NCBI RefSeq assembly: GCF_026210795.1 | Contig: NC_089447.1 | Location: 4,032,501-4,096,500, forward strand | DNA from: Rhizophagus irregularis | Lineage: Eukaryota > Glomeromycota > Glomeromycetes > Glomerales > Glomeraceae | Reading direction: 5' to 3' | Length of the DNA: 64,000 nt | In this document: positions 20,851-56,303 of the stretch, one piece after another | How positions within the stretch are numbered: position 1 is the stretch's first letter | Layout of the letters: every line of letters begins with the position of its first letter | Translations under genes and position numbers: made by a program | The notes under the pieces: generated by a model | Told to the model about the DNA's origin: nothing | What the model saw: the letters and a program-made list of their open reading frames with translations, nothing else | Database searches by the model: none

Positions 20851-22715
20851 ATGACATTAGAATTCCTAGAAAAAATTGATACAGAAAAAATTTTTACGAA
20901 AAAAGATAAACATAAAGCTGATATATTCTCATCTAATGATAAAACTTCCGTCGTTGAAGATAAAGATAATAATAGCGAATCATCAAATGATGTATTAATT
21001 CAAATATTTGATATCTCTAAAGTTGATCGTCCACATATAGTAGATTTATGCTCAACAAAAAAAAGTGTTTTACCCAGAGCTTTAGAAAATGTTCCTCTTA
21101 TTTCCCCTTCTATAAATTATTTAAGTTATTTTATACAAGTTTTACAACATTTAATTCTTACAATAATATTTGATTGGACCGCAATTATTACTCACCCCGT
21201 AAATTTCTTATTAACCTTTGTATTTTTTCCTACGTCTGCTATAATATTATTCTTTCTTGAAATTATTTTAAGATTCATATCTTTTTTAAATTTGGACTCT
21301 AATAATGAAACCGTTTTACAATCTTGGTCTAAATTAATACCTTTAACTGAATTATGTAAGTGATAAAATTATGATAATAATATTGAAAAAAAAAACAAAA
21401 AAAAAGATTATAATCTTAATTATTTTTATTTTTTTTTGCAGTGGCGAATCTTCGTTCAGGAATGGAATCTTTAGATCAACATCCTACATCAGATATTCAT
21501 AAAGGATTTAATTTAGATCGAACACAATTCTTGTTATTTCTTTCAACTATCATGTACGAGAGAAACGAAAAACAAGTTATTAAAGCTTATCGAATGATTT
21601 CCAAAATGAAAAAGGATATTAATAATAAAAGTGATGAAGATTTACAAACCGTTTATAAAATTCTTAAAGAAAGTGAAAAAAATATAAGAGATCAAATAAA
21701 AGATTTTGATCTTCAATTCACTTCACTTTCCGAATTAAATACTCTTGGAGGTCCTTATGTTGGAATGTTTTGGTCTGAAGAAAGAAATTTTATAACTATA
21801 GCTTGTAAAGGTACAACTCCAACTAATTTTAGTGAATGGTTAACAAATGCATCATTTCAACGTACGGATGCAAGAGCTTTTTTATTTGGTGAGGTTCATC
21901 AAGGTTTTTATAGTCAACTTTTCCCTATTAACGATTATGAATCAGCAAAACTTGATAGAAATTGTCCTGCAACAAGAATTATTAAAGCTGTTAATCAAAA
22001 AAGTGAAGAAATTAGAAATAAAAACATGGAAAAAAATAATATAAAACTTAAGGATACCCCTTTAGTAAATATTTATGTCACAGGTCATTCATTAGGTGGT
22101 GCATTAGCCAATTTATTATACGGTAGATTATTAAAATATCCTCGATGTTTAGGTGAACATTGTATATTAAGAGATGGTACAACTTTTGCAAGTCCATCAA
22201 TTGGAGATTCGGATTTCGCTGCAGAATTTTCATCATTATGTAATCGTTCAATTGAGGAATATAAAACATTATGGAGAATTGTATGTGATAGTGATATCGT
22301 ACCACGTGTTCCAATTGGTCATAATAATCCAAAATTACGAAGATATACTCAAAAAATACATATAATGAATTATTTTCATGTTGGTGATGAAATAAGGTTT
22401 TATCAAGATGGTACTAGACCTTCGTCTATGCGTGATATTTTTAGTGATAATAAAGAATTATTATTCCTTGAACATGGTTTAGGTTGGAATGAATGGAAAA
22501 GTTTATTTGGTCTTTATGATCCTCTTGATGATAAAAAACATCATATTAAATCTTCTTTCGATCCTAGATATAATACAAGTTTAATACCTATTGAAAGATT
22601 ATTATTACCTTTTATTCGTAACCATATGACTCATCGTTATCTTGCTGCTTTGGAAAAATCTAGAAAATTTTTTAATAATAATATAGTTGTTAAAGGAGGT
22701 GATAATATAGTTTAA
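20851..22715 (+). CDS. membrane-anchored class 3 lipase-like protein
   Basis: Exon 1 (20851-21355), a GT-AG intron (GTAAGT to TTTGCAG) and exon 2 (21442-22715) give 592 residues in phase. The alpha/beta-hydrolase nucleophile elbow is GHSLGG (Ser near residue 384, preceded by NIYVT). The likely acid is in VCDSDIVPRVP (about residue 453), and a His in NHMTHRYLAAL near the C-terminus (about 565-570) fits the third triad position. ITIACKGT provides the oxyanion-side strand. Residues about 95-150 are strongly hydrophobic (two or three membrane segments around ILTIIFDW and FLLTFVFFPTSAIILFFLE). The first 80 residues are charged and probably cytosolic. A role in triacylglycerol or other lipid-ester hydrolysis at a membrane is inferred from the family. 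No premature stop or frameshift. The second exon alone would lack the membrane region, so the two-exon model is preferred. Confidence 0.88.
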
Positions 22716-33807: not shown

Positions 33808-34642
33808 CTAAAAATTTGCCCAATGACCGCCTCGATGGAATGCCAAATCATTCCATTTATTCCAATTACTTTCTAACATCTTACAGTCAACATTTTTAAC
33901 ATCCACTTCAGTGCATTTACTATGTGATTTAGCTTTTTTATCTTTACCGCTAATACCGCACCGCTTTTCTTCCTTTATTTGTAACTCGTTCTTTGGTTTC
34001 CAAATAAGCACTTTGAATTCTAATAAAACTCTCCCAGTTATTTGTTTCAGTACCTTATACAACAATTTTTCTTCAGTTATTTTATAGCACCTTAATAATT
34101 CTATTAACTGACAACTGACTTGATTCTTCATTAAAAATGTAAAATCATATAAACATCCAATATCCCACATACCAAGCTCATTAATTTTACCTTTTAATTC
34201 TTGTGTATCTATATCATCTTTTGAATACTTCTGTATAATTTTAGCTAAAAAAATTTTTAATCGTTTGAGTATATCTTGCACAATATTTTGAATCTTACTA
34301 CATTTCCAAAAATAATCAAAGGTTTCTTCTTCTATTTTACAAAAATTACATCTCCAATCTTCATCATATAGATCTGGCTTACGCTTTTTTAAATTAGTAC
34401 AAGTTGGTAATTCATTACAACAAATTTTAATCTTAATAAATGATTGTAAATAATGATCCTCAAACAATGTATCATATTGATTTATGTTATTTAACTTTAA
34501 AGATATTTTCCAATCTATCAATCTTAATAGATCTGATTGTCTATAAACTTTATTACAGTGTAGCATTAGGAATTCTTCTATAAATTGAGCGTCCTTTATT
34601 CTTTTTATCATAAGAATAGGGTTACGTTCTATAGGCATATCT

Positions 34643-35838
34643 AAAGCTCTGAACAGTTCGGGCTAAACTGGAAAACTGATCCGAAACCGGCTCAAAATTC
34701 GGTTCGGTTCGGTTCGGGTATTAGAACCGAAAAACCGGCGGTTCAGTTCAGTTTAATCTGATTTTTTATAAAAATGCGAAAAATCGAATAGCCGGCCATC
34801 TAGTGATCGTACAAAGTTGAACCATATATCATTGGATTTGGCTCAACGAGACGCGTTGAATTGCGGTAAGATCATGTCTCTAGCATCGATAGATCACACG
34901 TTAACCCACGCTAAATGATTTATAAATAATTGGAATTAGCAAGCTATCTATCAGTGCTAGAGACATGATCTTAGCACCATTCGACGTGTCTCAGTGAGAT
35001 GAATCCAATGAATATGAATTCATTCATATACGACCACTGGATGGCGAATAATATCAAGTTTCGCATTTTTTTAAAATTTTCAAACGTTAAAAATTAAAAA
35101 TTCCGATACATGAATTTATTCGTCGTCCAATGGCCGCACAAATATGAATTAGGACTCATTGGATTCGTCTCGATGAGACGAGTCGAATGGTGGTGAGATC
35201 ATGTCTCTAGCATCGATAGATAGCTTGCTAATGCCAATTTTTTATAAATCATTTAGCGTGAATTAACTTACGATCTATTGATGCTAGAGACATGATCTCA
35301 CCACCATTCGACTCGTCTCATCGAGACGAATCCAATGAGTCATATTTCATAATTGTACGACCATTGGACGACAAATAAATTTATGTATCGGAATTTTTAA
35401 TTTTTAACGCTCGAAAATTTTTAAAAAATGCGAAACTTGATATTATTCGCCATCCAGTGGTCGTACACGAACGAATTCATATTCATTGGATTCGTCTCAC
35501 TGAGACGCGTCGAATGGTACTAAGATCATGTCTCTAGCACCGATAGATAGCTTGCTAATTCCAATTATTTATAAATCATTTAGCGTGGATTAACGTGTGA
35601 TCTATCAATGCTAGAGACATGATCTTACCTCCATTCGACGCGTCTCGTCGAGATGAATCCAATGATATATGGCTCGACTTAGTACGATCACTAGATGGCC
35701 GGCTATTTGATTTTTCGCATTTTTATAAAAATCAGATTAAACTGAACCGAACTGCTGGTTTTTCAGTTCGGTTCTTACAGATTTTGGCTCTAATCCGAAC
35801 CGTCTATAATCTGGACCAAACCGACCCATTTGGAGCTT
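34643..35838. mobile_element. 1.2-kb multi-level palindromic element (MULE-MITE-like) in the retroelement
   Basis: A strikingly GC-richer palindrome. The outer arms carry GGTTCGGTTCGGTTCGG and AGCCGGCCATCTAGTGATCGTAC. Inner arms carry four copies of CTAGAGACATGATCTTA-like words and CATTCGACGCGTCTCA in alternating orientation. The ends read AAAGCTCT and, inverted, AAAGCTCC. The flanks share TAGGCATATCT (34632-34642 and 35839-35849), i.e. a duplication of 9-11 bp depending on one or two shared bases. The insertion separates the RNase H part from the C-terminal Cys segment of the retroelement. The plus frame at 35619-35951 is a by-product of the palindrome. Confidence 0.8.
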
Positions 35839-38499
35839 TAGGCATATCTCTCCAACAAACTGTACCATTGTGTAATAACAATTTATCCTCTATTATTAAT
35901 ACATTTTTCTCAGCACCAGATTTAGCGAGCTTATCTGCTTCTTTATTATAATCACAATCACTATGCGCTTTAACTTTACTTTGAGACTATAGATCCTAAT
36001 TATCTTGAATAAACATAACCATAAAACCTTATAATTAACTTTTGATCTTTCTATATTTTTAATCGTCAAAAAGTTTAAATCATCAAATGTATTAACTACC
36101 CATTGAGAATCACTATATATTTCGATATTTGCAGCTTTAGGACAGGTCATTAAACTTAATATCACTGCCATTAATTCAGCCTTATTAGAGGAAGGATTAT
36201 CTGCAATTTTACAATTAAAACTTTTCTTTATAGGAGCGCTAATTATGAACGCACAACCCATCATTATTTTGTTAGTTGCTATATTTTTCATCAACCCATC
36301 TGTATAAATCTCTATATCAGTTTTTTGCGTTAAACTATTTGCAATTTCTATTAACGCATTACGATAATCACTTGGATGTATATATTTGAACAAGCCATTC
36401 ACTTTTTCAATAATACATTCATTTTTAGACGTTTTTCCACAGTATTTACATTCCGCTTGAACTAACGTCTCATAAATAGCCATATCTGCTATATAACGAT
36501 CATTTTGTATTGAATTTGCATTAACTTTAACACAATTTTCTATATTAATATCTGCTATACACCTTACTTTAGTGTTACTTCTTTTATTTCTGATCTGATT
36601 CGTTTTCACTTCGCATCCTCCACATTTTTTAAGGATTGGTAACTGTACTGATGGTGATATTTGATCATTTTCTAGGTTTTGTATCCAATGTTCTATACGA
36701 ATTTGTCCTCATTTGGATTATCTAAAACACGCCCTATTATAGGTTTACCTATTTGATCATGAAAGGTTGTTATCCAATTTTTTGTTTTTAAATTATTAAT
36801 TTTTGTATTTACACTATGTATATTATATTCTAATTGATAATCAGTTTTCACTTTCTTAGATTTTAAAGGATCTTCAATAAGTTTAGTTTCTATAAACTTG
36901 AACCAACTAGGGATTCTACCCTGTGTATTTATCTTAGTCCTGTGTTTCAAATCTTTATATCTCAGAAGACGTATACCATCTGACGACATTAACTGATTAA
37001 CGAAATAAACATTTTTCCCTTTCAGTCCCTTACTAATTCCATTTGAAAATATTTCTTTATGTGTACATATTTTTACTATTAGTAATAATCCCTCTTGAAT
37101 CTGATTAACTTTCACACCACTTGATTTTATGGTTAACATATTGTCATATAAAAGTGCTAAAACACGAGCTAATAAACAGTGTTTTACTTGTAAGTCTTTC
37201 TGACTGATATTCCATGTTGCTAATGGAGATTTATTAGACAATAATTCACTTTGCAATTGTTTACAATCTATTTCAAAAATATCTTTCATCATACCCTTTG
37301 ATATCACTTGATTATATAATCTACTTAACTGTTTTTGAGCTTGAATCGTATTAATATCTTTAATAGCGTAGCACAATGATGAATGTATAATACTATTAGA
37401 AGTAGTAAGTGGCAATGACGCTTTTCTTTTAAACATATATCTACAGGTAGAATTTAATTTTTCTGTTTGAGAATTTGTCCAAACTAACAATTGTGCTTTA
37501 TAATCAACACAAAGAATGATCACGTGATTATATATATATTTCATCTGCAAATCCGTTATTTGTTTGAAGCTAATTGTTTTATTATATCTTTTAATAATAT
37601 CCTTGCACTGATTAAAGACATAATTAGTTTTTAAATCTAAATTAATCCAAACACCTAAAATTTTCACAGATTCTTTTGATGTTAATGGTTTAATCATTCT
37701 TTTTGACGATCCAAAATTAACTTCAACAATATCTTTATTTAACTTTTTGTTCGTTATCATTTCAAACTTATCATAATTTGTTTGTATATTATTCATAGTG
37801 TTGAATTCATCTGCAATTTTCAAGATCTGCTCTAACTGAGCTTTACTTTTAGTAATTCACGTGACGTCATCCATATATGACTGTGATGATATATTGATCC
37901 TGAGTTTTTCTTCTTGGTCTGATTGTACATTACTTTTAAAGCAATGCTCAATTTCATATCCCATTTTTAATGAATTAATTTCTGCGAGCAATGGATCATA
38001 ATAAATTGTCCATAGCAGCGGTGAAATGACCTCACCTTGATCTATTCCTATGATAGACATATATTGTTTCATTATTCCTTTTTCTTTTATAACACTTTTT
38101 TTACTATTCGTAAATAAGTTAATCATCAAACAGATCAAAACCTCTGGGATCTTAATTCTTTGCAATGCTAATTTAAGCATCTTAATTATACATGAAACCA
38201 AAATTGGTTAATTTTGACCTCCAAAATGGTCGAAATGGTCGAAATGATTTCGACTTGAGCCCCTCCAAAAGTCAAAATGGTTGAAATTACATCATAGTTA
38301 TATGATTTTATAGTAAACAATAATATTAAAATTCAAAGTTAACGAACTCCGCATCCAGTGATTCGATTTTTATGATCTTTACACGGTTGGATTCAGCTCA
38401 TTGAGAGGATTCCAATGACATGTATTTCATATTTGTAGCATCAATATTGACGGAGTTATTCACGTTTAAAATTTGGTATTAAATAGTCTTATAATTTTA

Positions 38500-41601: not shown

Positions 41602-44600
41602 ATTAAAATTCAAAGTTAATGATCTCCGCATCCAGTGATTCGATGGTTATGATCTTTACACGGTTAGATTCAGCTCATCAAGAGGATTCCAATGATATGT
41701 ATTTCATATCTGTAGCATCAATATTGACGGAGTTATTCACGTTTAAAACTTTATATTAAATTATAATTATAAAAATCACATGACTATGATGTAATTTCGA
41801 CTATTTTGACTTTAATTTCGACTTTTGACCTTCTCAAGTCAAAATATTTCTACTTTTGGGCTTTAATTTCAACTTCATATATAATCTTAATATCTACCCT
41901 ATCGTAAGCTTTAGAGAGGTCCTGAAAAGTCAACCATAACTCTTTATTATTCTTCTTTGCATCTTCGATACAAGTATTAATGATTCTTAGAGGCGCCTCT
42001 GTAGATCCACCAGATAGTCCCGTGTGATTACCTCCTTTTAATATATTACGCTCTGCAATAACTTTAGATAATCTTTTTGTAACAATTTTCACTAACATTT
42101 TTCTCAAAGTTTCTAGGAGTATTATTGGTCTAGTTTTTGTTAATGAGTACTTCCAATCCATTGTCTTCAGGATAGGATACAATAACGCATGTCTCCATTC
42201 TTCAGGAATATCACCAACTTGTAAACATAAATTTGCTAATTTTAATGTGATACTTTTCATTGAAGTTCCCATATGTTTGAGCATTTCATTCGATATCTAG
42301 GAGATTCCTGGCGCGTTATCATTTACTAACTTTCTAATCATATGGTCCCATTCACTCTCACTAATAGGTTGAATAACCTCGTTATACCAACATTAATTTA
42401 TATCTTGTTTAGGGCTATATTGACGAATCCATCTTCCTTTTAACTTTTCATTTGAATTCAACTTTTTTCCTGCAAATGATTTGAAATGTTCAATCAACTC
42501 ATTTTCTATCAATTCCTCATCTGAAATTAATTGTTTTACTGAATTTTTTTCTATTACTATTTTATCCAGGACAATTTTACTTCTTTTTCTATTCAACGTA
42601 GAATCTAGGAACCTTTTTTTATTATCTTGTAGATCCTCACACTGTCATTGGATATAAAACTTCATTTTCTCTTCTTTATATATTTTACTTTCTTCAGCAA
42701 AATTCACCTGAACTAATTTAAAGGCTATCTTGACTATTTCTTTAAACTCTTTTATATTTTTATTGAGCAGTCCATCTATGTCTATTGCAAATTTAAAACA
42801 TATTTCTGATATTGTTTCATAATGCTTTTCTATAAATTTTTTACACTTTCTATAATTAGTTAAGTTCAAACTCATGATCTTTTTTTCCGTTAAATTTGTT
42901 AAAATATATGATAATTTATGTAAAAATCTCTTATAAAACACGATAGTTTTTGGTAACACTTATTTGTTCGGGTTACCTTTCTTTTTCGGCAATTCATTAT
43001 TAGCTTTTTTAAACGTATTTCGAATTGTATTCCATATTCTATTTATATTATTGATCGAAATTTCTACATTATCAATTATATCTTTTTCTTTATCCAATAA
43101 CTTTCCTATTTTTTCTGCATATGTTTCCCATAATTGACTATCTATTTTCTTATAATCCACTTTCAAATTATTATTGTTATGTTTTTTCTTTTTAAATAAT
43201 TGTTTTGTATGAAACAGGTCATCTATTTGGAAATATACCGTTACGGCTGAATGATCGGTTTCAAATATGTGGACTTTATTCGTAGACGCATAGATAGTAT
43301 CTAGTACTAAATTTTCTGTGACCCATATGTAATCAATTCTAGATTTTTTATCTGATCTATTCCATGTATTCAGTGGTTTATCATGGTAAATTAAATTAAT
43401 ATCAATCATAACGTTCTTTTTTAATATCTGAAAAATATGATCTTTCCAGAAAATTTTTCGATTTGCTCTTTGTTGAGCTATCGCTGTATCATAACTTGCA
43501 TTAAAATCTCCAATACAGACTATTTTAGCTTTTAATTTTTTCTCAGCTGTTAAAATTTCTTCTAATTTCGTATAAAATTCCAAAATTTCATCTTTATAAC
43601 TATTATTCGAAAAGTTATAAATTGCAATTATTGTGAAACGAATCTTTCCTTTCAAAAGTAACGTAAGTTTTAAAGCTCAACCTTCAATGATATCTTTTTT
43701 AATAACATATTTTGCATAATCATTATTCATTATAATCTCAACTCCAGTCAAAAAATGGTTGTCATCGTCGCATGACGATCAAGTCGTTATATCCTTATAA
43801 TCTTTATAAATCATTTTCGCACTAGCAGTTTGAAGTTTTGTTTCTGTGACTATTAAACAACTAATCTTATTAATTTTCATATAATTTAAAACTTGTTCTT
43901 GCTTAAGTATTGTATTTAATCCTGACACATTAATTGTTGTTATCTTAAATGTATTATTAATGTCCATAATACCATCAATAGATGGTCGAATATCTATAAG
44001 TTGTACTATCATTGTTGATTATATTGGGGGTTGGTTATTCTGTTATTGAATTCCATAGCCCTGTCTTCATTGACATATGGTGTTTGGTTGTTCATTAAGT
44101 GGTCAAATTTTCCAGACATATCTTGTAATATACTAAACGCCTGACCCATTCTGACTTCAAAATTGTCTAATTGTTATGTATTTCCTTCTTGACTATTTGG
44201 GGACGAAGGTGATGTACCCAACGCGGTTGATGGTTCATATATGAACTTTTCTGTCTCAACTGTTTTATTTACTTCACTATCTTCTTCCATAGGAGATAAT
44301 GTACGAGTTTGTACATTTGGCGCAACATTTTTATCGATATACACATTACATGTTTGTTGAAATTCTTTTACCCTTTTATTATTATTATTCATGAACGTAT
44401 TATCATCATTAGCAAACAATAATTCTACTTTTCTATTACTCAAAATCTCAGCTTGATTAATATGATTAATTTCTAAATTTGAAACTCTCTCATTCAATCT
44501 TTGTATCATATTCATGAATTTTTCCATTTGTCGTTCCAATCTATCCAGCCTATCACCCTCATTATTAACTGGTGTAGGATTAATATTCTGTTGATTCCAA

Positions 44601-47745: not shown

Positions 47746-49031
47746 GACGATTTCTTGGAGATAAAATTAACACTTGTGTCACAATGTGTCCTTCACTTGA
47801 CTAAGGGGTTTTTATAAAAAAAAAGGTCATAATCTTATTTTATATATCACGAGAGTGATATTTTAACTTATAAGTATAAAGATAATGAGGGTTGTCTATC
47901 ATGAGATGTTCTGTGTAATTTTAACGATAAATTTGTGTAATTTTAATTTATTTTAATTATCTCGATTAAGAAAATTCTGCAATGTTAATTAGATTAAAAA
48001 ATCGTCATCATTCCAAAAAATCCTCACAATGTGTCATTTTTTGATAAAAAAAAATTTTTTTATTCTCTATAAAAATGACTACTAATAAATGCAAAGAAGG
48101 TCGTCCGCAGAATGAAGTATGGGAGCATTATACGCAAGGCGAGCGTAATTCAGAAGGGCATGCAAGTGGGACTTGTAAATTTTGTAAAAAAATTTTTAGT
48201 AGAGGTGATGTGTCTACATTACAGAGACATATTGCAAACCATTATCCAAACGCCCTACCTCACTTAATTCAAAATTATCAAAAAGTATTTGAAGAGAAAG
48301 CGAACAACAATAATAAAAAAAGAAAATTTTCTAATCAAACATCTTTATATGATTATCACGATGCTGATGAACCACTTTCTCAAAGAAGAATTGATAGAAT
48401 CAACAGAACTTTGTTAAAATTCTTTGTATGTTGTGGAATATCTTTTCGTGTAGTAGAATCACCATTTTTTACAGATTTTATCAATGAACTTAACGTTGCA
48501 TATGACCCTCCATTTCAGGAACTATTGGCCAATTGCTTATTTAAAGATGAATTAGGGAATGTTAATTCTAAAATTCATAAAGAATTGCAAATGTCAGACA
48601 ATTTAACACTAGGTATGTTACTTAAAAAAAATTTTTGATAAAAATCTATTAATATATTTAATTTATATTTAATTTTTAATATTAGCTTTAGACGGGTGGT
48701 CATCTTCTAACCATAGATCTATATAACAGGGCGGACATCTCTATTTTATCACGATTTTGCCGATTATTTTGCCGATTATTTGTTGATTATTTATTCAATC
48801 TTATCACATAAGAAAAATACTATTATTAGTTATTTTTTTGCAAAATTTACATAATAATCTATACTAAAATCTTAATAATAGCTTAACTTTACTTTGGAAT
48901 TATAGTATATTAATTTTCACCTAAATCAGAATATTATTAAGCAACTTTACTAATGGCAACTTTTTATAATTTAATAAAAAATAAGTATTTTTATTAAAAT
49001 TAAAATAAAATAAAGGATTTTTATCTATTAT

Positions 49032-52000
49032 TTACATATTATTATAGTTTTGCCATATATTGTATTGAATTTCATATTGATTATTTATATTATATTCTTT
49101 TTGTTCTAAAAGACTATCAATATTTTCATCATCATAATCTTCATCTAAACCCTTTTCTTCTAAAAATTCAGGTATTTCATTATCTTTTAATGGTTTAGAT
49201 AATCTTTTATTCAAAGTAGTAATATTTGTTTTAATACTTTCTGATAAATAATTAAAACAATATTTGCATTTTTCATTAAGTAGATTTAGACATTCTTTAT
49301 GATAACTATGGCCACATATTAAAATAATGTTTGATGATGAATTTGATAATAAACAATTTTCTGCATCACAAAATTTATCAATATCAGGTAAATTTGAAGT
49401 ACTCCAAGCTAAAGGAAGAAGCATAACATCTATATTTCTATTATTAAAACTTGGAAGTTCAAATATATTATTGTTACTATTATTTGATTTTCCAATATTA
49501 TGATAAATTTTGTCAAAAAGAGATAATAAGAATAATGAAACCTTTTTCTCTAAAGATATTAATTTAACCTTTGAAATATTAACATTTCTTGTATTAACAA
49601 AAGTGGTTTTAAATCTATTATCATTTCTTTCAATATCAATGGTTTTTGCTTTTTGTATAATTTGTTTATCAGTATTTGATTCAGCTGTTTGATATCTAAG
49701 AGAACTATGAAAATTTTCAACAAAATAATCATTAAAAATTGGTAAATTATCTTTTAAAATATCTAGTATTGGATGATTATTTAATGTCCAATAAAACACA
49801 TCACTTAAAAATATAAGTGGTGCTTTATTATAATTATATCTATGTAATCTTTGAAATAAAATCCAAATTTTTACAATACTTTCTAAATATCCTTCAAAAA
49901 ATCCACATCTGAAAAGTTTAATATATATGTCTAAAGTAAGTGGTAAAGAATTGTCTAATAAATCTATCATCATTAAATATTCAATATCTTTTATATTTTT
50001 AAAACGGTTAACAATTAAATTACGAATATTTTTCCATCCATAATAAGTTAAATTTAATATAAGATTAATAAGTCTTGGCTTTGGTTTTTGTGCTAAAATC
50101 TTGTTAACTCCAAAGAGATCATGATATATCATTTCAAAAAAAAAATGATATTTTTGAAATAATGTTTCTCTACTATTTAAAGAAATATGTAGTGGTCCAA
50201 TCATGCATAGGAATTATACTTAGTATTTGAGATGAAATTCCAGAATTTTCTTTTTTATTAAGTTTTAATGTAATAGCTCTTCTTAGATTGACTTGACCAG
50301 GCCAATCACAAATTGTAGGTATTACAAAGTTATTAAAATAATCTTTTTGTTCTATTTTTTCAAATACCTTAAATAAAATATTTGCAGATTCAATATAATC
50401 TTTTGTATTGTGCAAAGGATGTAAAATAAAATCTACCAACTTACTATTTTTCATTGATCTTAATTCCTGTTGATTTTGAACACGTCCATCATAATTATGA
50501 ACAGTAAGAAATTCCAATTTATTTTCATAAGAATCATCAGATAAATGCTGCTTCCACATTTCATTTTGTTGATAATAACTTTTTCCTAATTTACTCATAA
50601 AGTTAACATTAATATAATCTATAATTAATTTAAAATCAACACCTTTAGGATTATAAATTGGAATATTGTTTAATGAGTAATAAGGTATTTTAGGAGTATT
50701 AGGATTTGAGTTTAATAAAATTGTTACAAAATGATTAATGTCATGTGTTTTTAATAGAGTTGGTTGATTTCTTCTATGAATATTATGATAATCATCAATA
50801 TTAAGTATAAACATATTTTCAATGTTTTGTAAACAATAGTCATTTACAGTATACTCAGTGTTGTACATGGGACATGTCCCGCCAAAATTTTAATGTCCCG
50901 GACATTGTCCCGTCCATGTCCCGTCCATGTCCCGTCCAAAAATTGTCCAAGTTTACAATTTGTCTTATCAAGACAGCACCTAATGGGCTATAATTTATAA
51001 TTAAGATCACGTGATTTTAATGTCCCAATGTCCCGGACATTGCTAAAATCCTTGGACGTGTCCTGGACTGTCCCATCCCGTCCCGTCCATGGACATGTCC
51101 CGTCCCTATGACAACACTGAGTATACTGATGATCTTCTGAAATAAGAGTTTTTTGTCAATTTACTGTTCTTCTGGATACTGATAATCCTATATTTGCAAG
51201 TGTATCAATAGAAGAAGCTGATGCTCCAGAAGTTTCTAAATATAATCCAATATCTGCTTTAATTCCATTTATATATTTGTTATTAATACTAGCTAAAAAA
51301 TAACATAAAGAAACTAGCTTTTTTTTATTATTATTATTTGTTTTTTCAGATTTTGTATTAGGATTAGTTCCTTTATACAATTCATCAAAAAAACCAATTA
51401 AATCTGCATCTGCTTCTTCTAACATAATTTCAAATTCATCAGGATCATAAATTGTTTTTTGTTTTAATACTCTTTGATTTTTGTAAAGAATGCTAGACAT
51501 TTTTTTGATTTTATTACTTAAACTTATTTCATTTGAAATAGTTAATTGTGTTATGATTTCTTGATAATCTGATTCAAACTGTTTTAATTCTTCTTCACTG
51601 TATAAAACATCTTTTCTAAATGAATAAGTATGATTTCCTATATTTAATATATTATCATCATTTTCTTTTTTAGAAATTGGTGCATTATATTCTTCTAACT
51701 TATTATAATCAGGATCCTTATCTGTCCTTTTTCTGCATAAGCTACAAATTTTAGCAGTTTCATCTAAATTTAAAATTGAAATTAATCTCTTTGGAACCTT
51801 TTCAAGATTAAGGTTTTTTGATTTTTTATTTGTATTTTTTGATTGGCTTTTATATTCATCATGCTTTGGATGAGAACAAGTTTCATTAAGTTTAAGGTTA
51901 TGTACTTCATTAGTAATAAATTTATTAAAGTGAGTTTGACATAGTTTCATTCCAACTAAAATAATTTCTTTATTTGTTATTGGAATTTTTATATTATTAG

Positions 52001-52064
52001 TAATTTGCCTAATCACTCCTTTGCAATCAGTTGAATTAAAGGTGCAAGTAGATTCTGTTGACAT
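49032..52064 (-). pseudogene. ~900-residue D-D-E-like protein with C-terminal RING-like motif
   Basis: Frames 52064-51156, 50868-50173 and 50204-49032 join into one protein after removing a MITE and correcting one TGA (after SRRTVN) and a 4-base shift at about 50200 (ATGCAT). The N-terminus has Cys/His clusters (CTFNSTDCKG, CQTHFNK, CSHPKH, CSLCRKR), probably DNA-binding zinc sites. The centre has FILNIDDYHNIH, TICDWPGQVNLRRAITL and, in the third frame, NDYFVENFHSSLR. These three acidic sites could form a D-D-E nuclease core. A C-terminal CDAENC..ICGHSYHKECLNLL..CKYC matches RING spacing. I recall the DDYHNIH block from very many Rhizophagus proteins, and the layout faintly resembles DUF6589 proteins. 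Transposase function is inferred from the TIRs and target duplication around it. Confidence 0.7.
50856..51119 (+). mobile_element. 264-bp hAT MITE (CAGTGTTGT family) with AGTATACT duplication
   Basis: Ends CAGTGTTGTACATGGGACAT and, inverted, CAGTGTTGTCATAGGGAC. The 8-bp duplication AGTATACT is perfect (50848-50855 and 51120-51127). The interior is a GTCCCGTCCATGTCCCGTCC-type repeat. It interrupts the D-D-E-like gene in the middle of a coding region; removing it with one duplication copy restores the local frame. Other members: split copy at 45317/46033 and a terminus at 61891. Confidence 0.92.
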
Positions 52065-54614
52065 TTTATTGAATAATTTTTTTAAAACTTTAATATTTAT
52101 ATTAAAAAAAATGTTGTTTTTTATTAAATTATAAAAAAATAGTACTGTTTTATATTTAAATTAAATAATAATATTTTGTATTAAAAATGGTGCTATTTTT
52201 ATAAAAAAAATTTTGTGAATTTTAAAACTATTTATAAAAAAATGAACAATATATTAAAACTTTAATTATTTTATTTGAATTTTCTATTTAATGTTAATAA
52301 ATTAATTCTTAAAACAGATCATAAAGTTAGGCTAAAAATTAGCCTTATTAACCTTAATAATTGCAAGTATTCTTTTAATGATAACTTTTTGTTTATTAAA
52401 AATTATCCATGTTTATTTTAACCATAGATTTTTGAATACTTAAATAATATATTATAAAAGTTTCAAGTTTCGCCTGAACATCTGTGGCTTCACCCGAAGC
52501 TTCAAAGTCAAATTAGCAGATGATCAGCATATGATTTGTAAATACTAATTATTGAATATTTCGGCCCAAATCTAACTTTGGCACTACATTTTTTTTTGCC
52601 ACAATAATTTTATAGTATATTTTTGATAACCTAAATTACCAAACAAAATGATTATAAAATTTTTTTGAGAAATATAGTTTTACTTGAAGCCCTCAAAAAA
52701 ACGTGATAATCAATATATATGATCGGCAAATGATCGGCAAGGTGATAATTAGCATATCCGCCCTGTTGATCTATATGGAATTTTACTATACTAACTCCAA
52801 ATAGAAAAGAATATATATTTCAACTTTCTGATCCATCTAGTGATTCACACACTGGGGAATATATTGCAGAAAAGATTAAAGATGTTATCAATCGAGTTGG
52901 AGTATCAAAATTTTCAGCTATTGTTAGTGACAACGGATCTAATATTTGAAAAGCACATGAATTAATTGAAAAAAAATTTCCAAATATAATGAATGTTCAA
53001 TGCATTTTACACTATATAAACTTAATGTCATGTGACATAGTTCAACATTCATTTGCTGATAAGCTTCTAAAAAAAGTGAATATTTTAGCAACATTCTTTA
53101 GAAATAATGCTAGAGTAGGTAAAAATATTTTAAACTCAAATGTAATAATTTATTTTAATAATTGCTAAATTGAATTTTTTTTTTTTACAAAAAAAAATTA
53201 CTGTAGGTGCTAAGTTCCAAAAACTTTTAAACACAATGAATATTAAAGGTGGTGTGATCGTGCTTTACTGCAAAACAAGGTGGATGACTACTTATAAAAG
53301 CATTGACAATATTTTGAGAGTGAAAGCTGTTCTAGAAAATGTAAGTAAAACTAATTTTATTATTTATACTATTATTATATGAATAATAAATTTTTCTATA
53401 GATGGCAGCCAACCATTCAGATTTATTAACAAATGATAAAATTAAACCTATCATTTGTTTGTGGAATTTTTTTAATGAGTTGAAGGTTCTTGGATTTATT
53501 CTAAATCCATTGTGTAAAGCTGTATTAGCGTTAGAAAGGAGAGAAGTGGATTTAAGCGATTGTTACTTAGAATTAGCTCAAATTTCTCTTGCAATAAAAA
53601 AATTACCACGTCAAGTTTATTCAGAATTTCGTAATTATTGTATTGAAAAAATTAATGCACGTTTCAATGAATTTGATGATAATGATTACTTGCTGGCATT
53701 TTTTTTAACCCTCTTTTCTGAGGTATTGATTTATTTATTTTATTTATTATTATTTTGACTCACTATAATAATTAAATAATACTAAAATTAAATATATTTA
53801 ATTAGCTGAACTCCTAAAACATGGAATTTAGATGCGAATAGTTAAATATGCTGAAGTAACAGCACAAAAATTAGGGATGGATTTGACTAAGGCTCATACT
53901 CTTTGCTCTCATTTATTGAAATATAAAAATAAAGAAAGTCCTTTTAATTAACCATATACAGAGGGAATAGATAACCCAATTAAGTGGTGGTCAAGTATAG
54001 AATTAGAACCACCTTATTTACAACAACTTGCAATTCACTTATTTTCGATCTGCCCTAATAGTGCCAGCTGTGAGCGTGGATTTTCAATTTGTGGTTGGCT
54101 CTCAAATAAAAGGCGTCTCAAACTTGGTGTAGAGCGATTAGAATCAATGTTAAAATTAATAACATATTATAGGTCAAATGTATCTCACGAACTAGCTTTT
54201 TATGGAAAAAGTATTAAAAAAAATTCTCAGAAATTTAGTGATAGCGAATTAAATAATATTATAAATAAAATCTTAGCAGAACAGCGTTTGAAGATAATGA
54301 TGATGATGATGAAACCACACTGAAAGAGGATCAAGATGTATAAAGAACAACCGATGGACACATAATTCCAAATCATAAAGTAATGGTATGGATCGAAAAT
54401 ACATTAGATCTGTCTAACCCAAAAATTTTAAATGGATTAGAAAATTTTGGAGAGTTTCCAGAAGAAGAGGAAAATGAAATGAATGGTAATGTGAATGGAA
54501 ATAATCAAGATGATAATGAAGTAATGGGGAGGGATATATTAAATTATAATGTTGATGATTTGGTGAAAGAGTTTGAGAATTAACAATAATTATATTATTA
54601 ATAGTAATAATAGT

Positions 54615-56303
54615 TAGTGCTCTACACGAGCCAAACTGGCTCATGAGCTGGCTCAAGCTTTTCAAGCTGAGCCAAGCCAAGCCATGATTAAATTGGCTTG
54701 GTGGCTCACGAGCCAGCTTGGAAGAGCTCGAGCCAGTTATTAGGCTCAGCTCAAAAAGCTCGAGCCTGTAACAGACTTAGCTCAAAAAGCTCGAGCTGGC
54801 TCATGAGCCAAATGAGCTATTATACAAAAAATGTTGCAAAACGTTTTTATATAATAATGCATGCATAAACGAAATGTTTTTGCAACTTTTTTTCATTGTT
54901 TATTAAAGAACGTTGTGAAAACATTTATTTAAGTTTTTACATGTAAAATTGAAAAAAAAAACGCTGGAACTAATGATTCCAGCATTTTTACATGTAAAAT
55001 TGAAAAAAAATGCCGGAACTAATGATTCCGGCATTTTTACATGTAAAATTGAAAAAAAAAATGCCAGAACTAATGATTCTGGTGTTTTTACATGTAAAAT
55101 TGAAAAAAAAATGCTGGAACTAATGATTCCAGCGTTTTTACATGCAAAATTGAAAAAAAATGCCGGAATTAATGATTCCGGCGTTTTTACATGTAAAATT
55201 GAAAAAAAAATGCCAGAACTAATAATTCTGGCATTTTTACATGTAAAATTGAAAAAAAATGCCGGAACTAATGATTCCAGCGTTTTTACATATAAAATTG
55301 AAAAAAAAACGCCAGAACTAATAGTTTCAGCGTTTTTACATGTAAAATCAAAAAGAAACTGCCGGAACTAATAATTTCAGCGTTTTTACATGTAAAATTG
55401 AAAAAAATGCCAGAACTAATGATTCCGGCGTTTTTACATGTAAAATTGAAAAAAAAATGCCGAAACTATCAGTTTCAGCGTTTTTACATGTAAAATCAAA
55501 AAGAAAAACACCAGAACTAATGATTTCGGTATTTTTACATGTAAAATTAAAAAAAAATGCCAAAACTAATAGTTTCAGCGTTTTTACATGTAAAATCAAA
55601 AAGAAAAATGCCGGAACTAATTATTCTGTCATTTTTACATGTACAATCGAAAAAAAATGCCGAAACTATCCGTTTCAGCGTTTTACATGTAAAATCAAAA
55701 GAAAAATGCCAAAACTATCAGTTTCGGCGTTTTTACATGTAAAACCAAAAAGAAATACGCCAGAACCAATTATTCTGGTGCTTTTACATGTAAAATCAAA
55801 AAAAAAATGCCGAAACTATCAGTTTTGGCGTTTTACATGTAAAATCAAAAGAAAAATGCCGAAACTATCAGTTTTGGCGTTTTTACATGTAAAACCAAAA
55901 GGAAATACGCCGGAACCAATTATTCCGGTGCTTTTACATGTAAAATCAAAAAAAGAATGCCGAAACTATCAGTTTCAGCGTTTTTACATGTAAAATCAAA
56001 AGGAAAAATGCTGAAACAAATAGTTTTGGCGTTTTATATAAATATAAAAGTAAAAAATGTTTTGCAACGTTTTTTTTAATAATTTAAAGTAAAAACGGTG
56101 CAAAAACGTTTTTATGATAAAGCTTGAGCCAGCTCGAGCCCAGCTTGGCTCAAGCCAGGATTTTTATGGCTCAGCTTGGCTCGAACTGAACTAAGCCAAG
56201 ATTTTTTGTGGCTCGGCTCATTTCAGGCTTGGCTTGGCACAGATCTTCAAGCCGAGCCAAGCCAGACTGTAGCTCGGCTCGAGCCGACTCATGTAGAGCA
56301 CTA
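54615..56303. mobile_element. 1.7-kb hAT-like TIR element filled with hairpin minisatellite
   Basis: Ends TAGTGCTCTACACGAGCC and, inverted, TAGTGCTCTACATGAGTC. The flanks are ATAATAGT on both sides (54607-54614 and 56304-56311), although the surrounding TAATAATAG microsatellite weakens that 8-bp match. Subterminal regions are dense in GAGCC/GGCTC words (AGCTCGAGCC, TTGGCTCA). There is no transposase inside. It sits directly after the hAT transposase gene. Confidence 0.8.
54940..56040 (+). repeat. ~21 copies of a 51-bp hairpin unit
   Basis: Each unit holds the palindrome TTTTACATGTAAAA, an A-run, and an imperfect hairpin of the form GCCGGAACTAATGATTCCGGC. The hairpin stems vary between units in a compensated way (CTGG/CCAG, CCGG/CCGG, CCAG/CTGG). 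The long open frames on both strands here (for example 54949-55371 and 55457-55993) are products of the repeat and not genes. Confidence 0.9.

What the first reader, a model, noticed from the sequence alone, without database searches (positions are those of the whole stretch)
48725..52767. A 4.0-kb DNA transposon with an apparently undescribed D-D-E-like transposase plus RING-like tail
Seen: perfect 9-bp duplication (GATCTATAT), matching AACAGGGCGGAYAT termini with TGCCGAT subterminal repeats, and a single long gene filling the inside. The gene has N-terminal Cys/His clusters, IDDYHNIH, CDWPGQ and VENFHSSLR acidic blocks, and a RING-like C-terminus. Established: 9-bp duplications and DDE cores are typical of DNA transposons. 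Inference: the lineage-expanded DDYHNIH protein family is a transposase, which would explain its copy number.
Basis: partly seen in the sequence, partly recalled or inferred. Interest (0 to 1): 0.82.

Follow-up and report, generated by a model that had tools for sequence, protein, structure and literature searches.

The report
Undescribed P-element-like transposon family in Rhizophagus
This is a dead copy of a jumping gene from a family, apparently not yet described, seen so far in root-symbiotic fungi; its cutting enzyme is predicted to fold most like that of the fruit-fly P element but has its own sequence, its own ends and a 9-base footprint.

Summary
The host assembly is Rhizophagus irregularis. 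One correction: the inner gene is not one long frame here. This copy is dead (in-frame stop, nested 264-bp hAT-type element, frame shift); an uninterrupted copy exists.

The family is real. The exact 14-bp end occurs 139 times in the genome, the reversed control 0 times. Of 37 elements with paired ends, 27 have an exact 9-bp duplication and 2 an exact 10-bp one; swapped flanks gave 0 of 1332.

The parts
48716..48724 (.). left target-site duplication GATCTATAT
   Evidence: sequence; exact 9 bp
48725..48738 (+). left 14-bp terminal inverted repeat AACAGGGCGGACAT (the 'far' end, downstream of the gene)
   Evidence: 139 exact hits of AACAGGGCGGAYAT in the genome, control 0
48758..48778 (+). two subterminal TGCCGATTA repeats, 34 and 46 bases from the end
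   Evidence: one mismatch to TGCCGATCA allowed
49032..50213 (-). third open piece of the transposase gene: post-beta5 helix, helical insertion domain, catalytic E, RING-like tail
   Evidence: 90% identical to residues 529-918 of the L087 protein
49257..49370 (-). RING-like Cys/His cluster C-x4-C...C-x-H-x2-H-x2-C...C-x2-C
   Evidence: sequence; sub-threshold Pfam RING hits
49716..49718 (-). codon of the conserved Glu (VENFHS), proposed catalytic E
   Evidence: E in 70 of 72 aligned rows
50187..50198 (-). codons of GPLH, in the place of the C/DxxH motif of P, hAT, MuDR, Kolobok and Dada
   Evidence: G 71/73, H 72/73; follows beta5 in the model of a relative
50173..50889 (-). second open piece of the transposase gene: first and second catalytic D (its upstream end, from about 50856, is insert sequence)
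   Evidence: 94% identical to residues 313-529 of the L087 protein
50305..50307 (-). codon of the conserved Asp of CDWPGQ, proposed second catalytic D
   Evidence: D in 72 of 73 rows
50791..50796 (-). codons of Asp-Asp of IDDYHNIH, proposed first catalytic D
   Evidence: 57/57 and 56/57 rows
50856..51119 (.). nested 264-bp non-coding element with CAGTGTTGT ends and 8-bp duplication AGTATACT (hAT-type MITE) that splits the gene
51156..52160 (-). first open piece of the transposase gene (first ATG at 52064): N-terminal zinc modules and helical region
   Evidence: 92% identical to residues 1-315 of the L087 protein
51735..51878 (-). putative zinc module C-x-HPKHDEY...ICxxC
   Evidence: sequence; same module once in L087, twice in L089
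51930..52046 (-). N-terminal C-x6-C...C-x2-H cluster
   Evidence: sequence; strand-strand-helix arrangement in the model of a relative
52720..52739 (-). two subterminal TGCCGATCA repeats, 29 and 40 bases from the right end
52754..52767 (-). right 14-bp terminal inverted repeat AACAGGGCGGATAT (the 'near' end, upstream of the gene)
52768..52776 (.). right target-site duplication GATCTATAT
   Evidence: single copy in four empty paralogs
48048..54323 (+). the interrupted target: a decayed hAT transposase gene (BED finger 48048-48638, hAT dimerisation region 53952-54323)
   Evidence: zf-BED 25.5 bits, Dimer_Tnp_hAT 28.4 bits, both over cut-off

Best explanation
A dead copy of a cut-and-paste DNA transposon from a superfamily-level lineage of DDE transposons, seen so far in Glomeromycotina, whose catalytic core is closest in predicted fold to P-element transposase. 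Shown: 14-bp inverted ends, 9-bp target duplication, empty sites, many coding and non-coding relatives with the same or related ends, conserved D, D, E. Predicted: an RNase H core with a helical insertion between beta5 and the E helix. Inferred: the N-terminal zinc modules bind the TGCCGATCA repeats, whose first copy sits 27-29 bases from one end and 33-35 from the other, so that the two ends are told apart; the core cuts at the ends and joins them to target strands 9 bp apart; gap repair gives the duplication; the short copies are moved in trans. The role of the RING-like tail is open (pairing of subunits or contact with host proteins).
Confidence: 0.88

Rival explanations
1. It is a divergent Mutator-like element (MULE): 9-bp duplications and 14-bp ends fall in the MULE range, and MULEs abound in this genome.
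Confidence: 0.08
2. It is a true, very divergent member of the P superfamily rather than a sister lineage.
For: P-element transposase is the best structural match, and tied with Hermes. GPLH follows beta5, 34 residues after the second D; in P the D(2)H motif (D339) lies right after beta5, 35 residues after D303, and the insertion lies between beta5 and alpha4 (PMC8230255, PMC7776569 passages). P ends also carry unequal spacing of transposase sites, and internally deleted copies occur (PMC7776569 passages).
Against: Duplications are 9 bp, not 8. No THAP domain or other named transposase family in the Pfam tables shown. DxxH reads GxxH. 162-164 residues between first and second D against 72 in P. 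THAP domains are said to be absent from fungi (PMC7776569 passage).
Confidence: 0.2
3. It belongs with DUF6589, a Pfam family of unknown function, which would itself then be a transposase family.
For: One member (P0255, Gigaspora rosea) matches DUF6589 positions 100-162 at E 0.0015 over residues 335-399, which hold GDWPGQ...VLH, the region of the second D and the GPLH motif.
Against: 1 of 57 members scanned, 17.8 bits against a cut-off of 27. No DUF6589 match in this genome, but the model rang in no control genome either, so that search says little.
Confidence: 0.25
4. The protein is a passenger or a domesticated host gene, and the ends belong to an element moved by another transposase.
For: RING-like tail and hypothetical-protein annotations in databases.
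Against: Two coding clades each have their own version of the end, and 8 of 13 coding stretches held have paired ends with an exact 9-bp duplication; it is the only frame of 120 (L087) or 150 (L089) codons or more in those loci, and it has the predicted fold and residues of a transposase.
Confidence: 0.03

Closest known systems
P element / THAP9 (P superfamily)
   Different: 9-bp instead of 8-bp duplication; 14-bp ends (31 bp in the fly, 13 bp in zebrafish; PMC7776569 passages); no THAP or other named transposase match in the Pfam tables shown; GxxH for DxxH; 162-164 residues between the first two D against 72; C-terminal RING-like domain; fungal host. GTP binding untested.
hAT (Hermes)
   Different: hAT makes 5-8 bp duplications (PMC12730594 passage); zf-BED and hAT dimerisation models, which do match the hAT gene it interrupts, do not match it above background in the tables shown; GxxH for C/DxxH.
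Mutator-like elements (MULE / IS256)
   Different: No MULE match in the tables shown; weaker fold match; GxxH; long first-to-second D spacing.
DUF6589 (Pfam, unknown function)
   Same: One sub-threshold match across the second-D/GPLH region.
   Different: 1 of 57 members; not over the cut-off; relationship unproven.
KDZ and Plavaka
   Same: Transposon groups of fungi present in the same genome (23 and 123 scored places).
   Different: None of those places lies within 3 kb of 68 places of this family; Zisupton makes 8-bp and Plavaka 2-3 bp duplications (PMC12730594 passages).

Membership tests
Cut-and-paste DDE DNA transposons | Terminal inverted repeats flanked by a fixed-length target duplication | tested here: met
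   27 of 37 exact 9 bp, 2 exact 10 bp; control 0 of 1332; 3 further pairs exact; empty sites
Cut-and-paste DDE DNA transposons | RNase H-like catalytic domain with D, D, E/D | tested here: met
   Models; conservation; fold matches. Predicted, not solved
Cut-and-paste DDE DNA transposons | Excision and strand transfer by the encoded protein | not testable with these tools
   needs a bench assay
P superfamily | 8-bp target duplication (PMC7776569) | tested here: not met
   9 bp in 27 of 37, 10 bp in 2 of 37
P superfamily | N-terminal THAP C2CH domain (PMC7776569) | tested here: not met
   No THAP match at E up to 5 for L087 and L089, nor at E up to 3 for 20 members, of which some lack the N-terminus; profile search only
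P superfamily | [C/D](2)H motif right after beta5 (PMC8230255) | tested here: not met
   G in 71 of 73 at the C/D position, H in 72 of 73; place right after beta5 agrees
P superfamily | GTP-binding helical insertion domain | tested here: inconclusive
   A helical insertion is predicted at the same place; GTP binding not tested
MULE | 8-11 bp target duplication and ends of 14 bp or more, or none (PMC6446971) | tested here: met
   9 bp; 14-bp ends
MULE | Transposase of the MULE family | tested here: not met
   No MULE match in 22 individually shown members, while the model works in this genome (150 places). Sequence-profile sensitivity only
hAT | 5-8 bp duplication (PMC12730594) | tested here: not met
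   9 bp
hAT | hAT C-terminal dimerisation region | tested here: not met
   No match; the neighbouring hAT gene does match. One zf-BED hit at E 3.8 in L091 is noise
KDZ / Zisupton | KDZ transposase domain | tested here: not met
   23 KDZ places in the genome, 0 within 3 kb of 68 family places; no KDZ match
Plavaka (CACTA-like) | Plavaka domain and 2-3 bp duplication | tested here: not met
   123 of 180 candidate places scored, 0 of the 123 within 3 kb; no match; 9-bp duplication
DUF6589 | Match over the Pfam cut-off | tested here: not met
   1 of 57 members at 17.8 bits, cut-off 27
RING finger | C3HC4/C3H2C3 cross-brace cluster over a Pfam cut-off | tested here: inconclusive
   Many sub-threshold RING hits (zf_RING_Vps8 in 39 of 57, best 6.2e-5); none over a cut-off in the tables shown, but a precomputed PF23555 for P0213; RING-like spacing in 59 of 73 rows

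The most novel reading that the evidence does not exclude
The family is a separate superfamily of DDE transposons, a fungal sister group of the P/THAP9 lineage reported from animals. It would include DUF6589 proteins as further, unrecognised transposases. It would pair one 'near' and one 'far' end by an asymmetry like that of P elements and of the 12/23 recombination signals, with a 9-bp target stagger and a RING-type tail.
Probability: 0.35. Interest if true: 0.75.

Novelty: new variant of a known kind. Interest (0 to 1): 0.62.

Why it matters
About a quarter of the R. irregularis genome consists of unclassified repeats that are not expanded gene families (24%, PMC8647823 passage). The curated library of PMC11075540 kept a coding DNA element only if it matched one of a list of known transposase models, and filed short elements with inverted ends and no transposase domain as MITEs (methods section); so the coding copies of a family like this could be dropped and its short copies left without a parent. 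A defined transposase, defined ends and a set of short copies let such repeats be named and their recent activity measured across isolates of a plant symbiont. It also adds a fungal relative, by predicted fold, of the P/RAG/hAT group with an end asymmetry of its own, and a first functional hint for DUF6589.

Tried and rejected
Pfam and NCBIfam scans for a known transposase domain: none in the tables shown (NCBIfam for L087 and L089 only). One search shows 25 of its 49 families; the other 24 were not seen. PDB sequence searches gave nothing meaningful. DUF6589 model against the own genome: no match, and none in the control genomes, so uninformative. KDZ, Plavaka and MULE models as within-genome positive controls: they match elsewhere; the KDZ and Plavaka lists were compared with ours by script, the MULE list by eye only (no shared place seen), and only 150 of 407 MULE candidates were scored. 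Ends of the remaining coding stretches: L080, L081 and L082 show one end each, L086 and L091 none of the two 14-bp types and only a shared left end of a third type. Absence of a family from the fold lists excludes nothing. Profile-profile comparison with MULE, P or DUF6589 proteins was not done, because no alignments of these could be had. Papers: eight searches listed none whose title or abstract start describes this family; DUF6589 is in no paper held. Of nine papers I saw found passages only (PMC12730594, PMC11075540, PMC8647823, PMC5718144, PMC10045372, PMC3706591, PMC8230255, PMC6446971, PMC7776569), plus one methods section of PMC11075540. Subscription journals, preprints, supplements and Repbase were not searched.

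Rows dropped: of the 139 places of the end, one search lists only the first part; the 32 short elements are stretches in which two facing ends lay within about 1.3 kb, so single ends and decayed copies were not examined. One search was made before L079, L083 and L084 were tested, so they are not in its 37, nor is L085. The alignments hold chosen, not all, homologs (73 rows in A3, 57 in A4, 52 in A5); the protein searches list 120 of 176, 117 of 117 and 120 of 262 hits.
Full report
Where we are. The window lies in a 146.7-Mb, 32-contig assembly. Its contig lengths (for example 5,894,816 and 5,296,510) recur as the contigs of Rhizophagus irregularis proteins OCT59_023513 and OCT59_028915 in the protein search, so the host is R. 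irregularis, an arbuscular mycorrhizal fungus.

The observation. 48725-52767 begins with AACAGGGCGGACAT and ends with the reverse complement of AACAGGGCGGATAT, and GATCTATAT stands directly outside both. The target is a decayed hAT transposase gene: a BED finger to the left and a hAT dimerisation region to the right, both over the Pfam cut-off. Seven places match the left flank, the window included. Of the six others I fetched the four best; in all four the hAT sequence runs on without an insert and with a single GATCTATAT. This is a direct view of empty sites.

The gene in this copy is broken. The minus strand carries three open pieces, which match residues 1-315, 313-529 and 529-918 of the protein of an uninterrupted relative at 90-94% identity. 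Between them lie an in-frame stop, a 264-bp insert with CAGTGTTGT ends and its own 8-bp duplication (50856-51119; 46 matches in the genome, itself and fragments included), and a frame shift. The relative, L087, is 3776 bp long, has the same ends, the 9-bp duplication GTGCCATAT and one open frame of 948 codons. L088 is 99.7% identical to it, with another duplication (GATAAATAT) and damaged reading frames.

A family, not one element. The exact end AACAGGGCGGAYAT occurs 72 times forward and 67 times reverse, the reversed control 0 times. A sister clade, about 67% identical in the C-terminal part, ends in AGCATAGCGGACAT: 86 plus 87 exact hits, control 0. Its copies L089 and L090 are 4553 bp long, differ at 3 bases, and have the duplications ATAAATAAA and ACAATGGTC; L083 (3852 bp) and L084 (4563 bp), with up to two mismatches in the ends, have exact 9-bp duplications too. 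In a third, more distant clade L085 shows AGCATGAGGA/AGCATAAGGA ends 3192 bp apart with the duplication TATCGCTAC, and one boundary coincides within 3 bases with where similarity to L091 and L086 starts (sequences). In all, 8 of 13 coding stretches held (window, L080-L091) have both ends and an exact 9-bp duplication; L080, L081 and L082 show one end, L086 and L091 only a left end of the third type.

Short copies. I fetched 32 stretches with two facing ends of the first type. In 22 of 32 the longest alignment to a coding element is 337-541 bases at 68-85% identity and lies in the region upstream of the gene, while in 10 it is about 154 bases. With five coding elements this makes 37: 27 have an exact 9-bp duplication, 2 an exact 10-bp one, 3 a 9-bp one with one or two mismatches, 5 none that can be recognised; left and right flanks swapped among loci agree in 0 of 1332 pairs. 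A further short copy, L079 (900 bp), has an exact one. The duplicated 9-mers show no fixed target sequence.

Unequal ends. The first TGCCGATCA-like repeat (one mismatch allowed) lies 27-29 bases from one end and 33-35 from the other in 30 of 37 elements; no element has two like ends; 7 lack the motif on one or both sides. In the window, L087 and L089 the near end is upstream of the gene. P elements also have unequal spacing of the transposase sites at their two ends, compared in that review with the 12/23 signals of V(D)J recombination (PMC7776569 passages). That the motif is the transposase site here is inference.

The protein. Among listed homologs with an organism name the hosts are Rhizophagus irregularis, R. 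clarus, R. diaphanus, Gigaspora rosea, Diversispora epigaea and Entrophospora; many rows carry no organism. The one named exception, a 'Bacteroidetes' metagenome protein on a 4.3-kb contig, 92% identical, is most likely fungal DNA misfiled. In the 73-row alignment the D of D-W-P-G-Q is kept in 72 of 73, the E of V-E-N-F-H-S in 70 of 72 (K in the other two), and the two D of D-D-Y-H in 57 of 57 and 56 of 57 rows that reach that far.

What it is like and what it is not. P, hAT, MuDR, Kolobok and Dada share a C/DxxH motif after the second D (PMC10045372 passage) and make duplications of 4-10 bp (PMC3706591 passage). Here the place right after beta5 reads GPLH (G 71 of 73, H 72 of 73): the histidine is kept, the C/D is not. 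The distance from the second D is 34 residues here and 35 in P (D303 to D339; PMC8230255 passage). The duplication is 9 bp against 8 in P. Pfam shows no THAP, hAT dimerisation, MULE, KDZ or Plavaka domain in 22 members shown one by one, although the hAT, KDZ, Plavaka and MULE models match elsewhere in the same genome. The one thread to a named family is a sub-threshold DUF6589 match (E 0.0015, 1 of 57 members), which falls on the second-D/GPLH stretch. So it works, by inference, like a P/hAT-type transposon, but membership in P, hAT or MULE is not supported by the tests made. I rate it a new superfamily-level lineage, open to revision by Repbase or profile-profile work.

Extras. The N-terminus has a C-x6-C...C-x2-H cluster and a C-x-HPKHDEY...ICxxC module, the latter once in L087 and twice in L089, which helps to explain the longer protein. 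The RING-like tail matches many Pfam RING models weakly (zf_RING_Vps8 in 39 of 57 members, best 6.2e-5). In Gigaspora P0090 its spacing is that of a usual RING-H2 (pattern recalled).

Novelty in print. None of eight library searches listed a paper that by title or abstract start describes this family. The curated R. irregularis library required, for coding DNA elements, a match to one of a list of known transposase models, and took short elements with inverted ends as MITEs (PMC11075540, section read). So the coding copies would have been left out unless they matched one of those models, while the short copies may be in it; I could not inspect the library itself.

Changes made on checking. 

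Noticed in passing
50856-51119: A 264-bp hAT-type non-coding element (CAGTGTTGT ends, 8-bp duplication AGTATACT) nested in the transposase gene; 46 matches in the genome, itself and fragments included.
   Followed up: partly
L077 (G000:C17:2165400-2166450): A short copy of this family inserted into another short copy of the same family: both flanks align to L056 and to the element's subterminal region.
   Followed up: partly
L047 (G000:C1:1907800-1909500): A 1286-bp double element with an internal copy of the end and a 9-bp duplication outside the pair, probably two short copies joined.
   Followed up: no
L089 protein residues 67-114 and 192-236: Duplication of the C-x-HPKHDEY...ICxxC zinc module in the sister clade, present once in L087.
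   Followed up: partly
P0122: A 'Bacteroidetes bacterium' metagenome protein that is 92% identical to the fungal transposase, most likely misfiled fungal DNA.
   Followed up: no
P0255 residues 335-399: Weak DUF6589 match over the second catalytic D and GPLH region, a hint that this Pfam family of unknown function may be transposases.
   Followed up: partly
33808-37856 and 42960-43676, minus strand: Open frames that look by eye like LINE-type retrotransposon pieces (endonuclease and RNase H-like); no search made.
   Followed up: no
21420-22715: Open frame of 431 codons that by eye looks like a class 3 lipase (GHSLGGA motif, recalled); no search made.
   Followed up: no
54903-55993: Minisatellite-like stretch giving long repetitive open frames, on both strands in its first part.
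   Followed up: no
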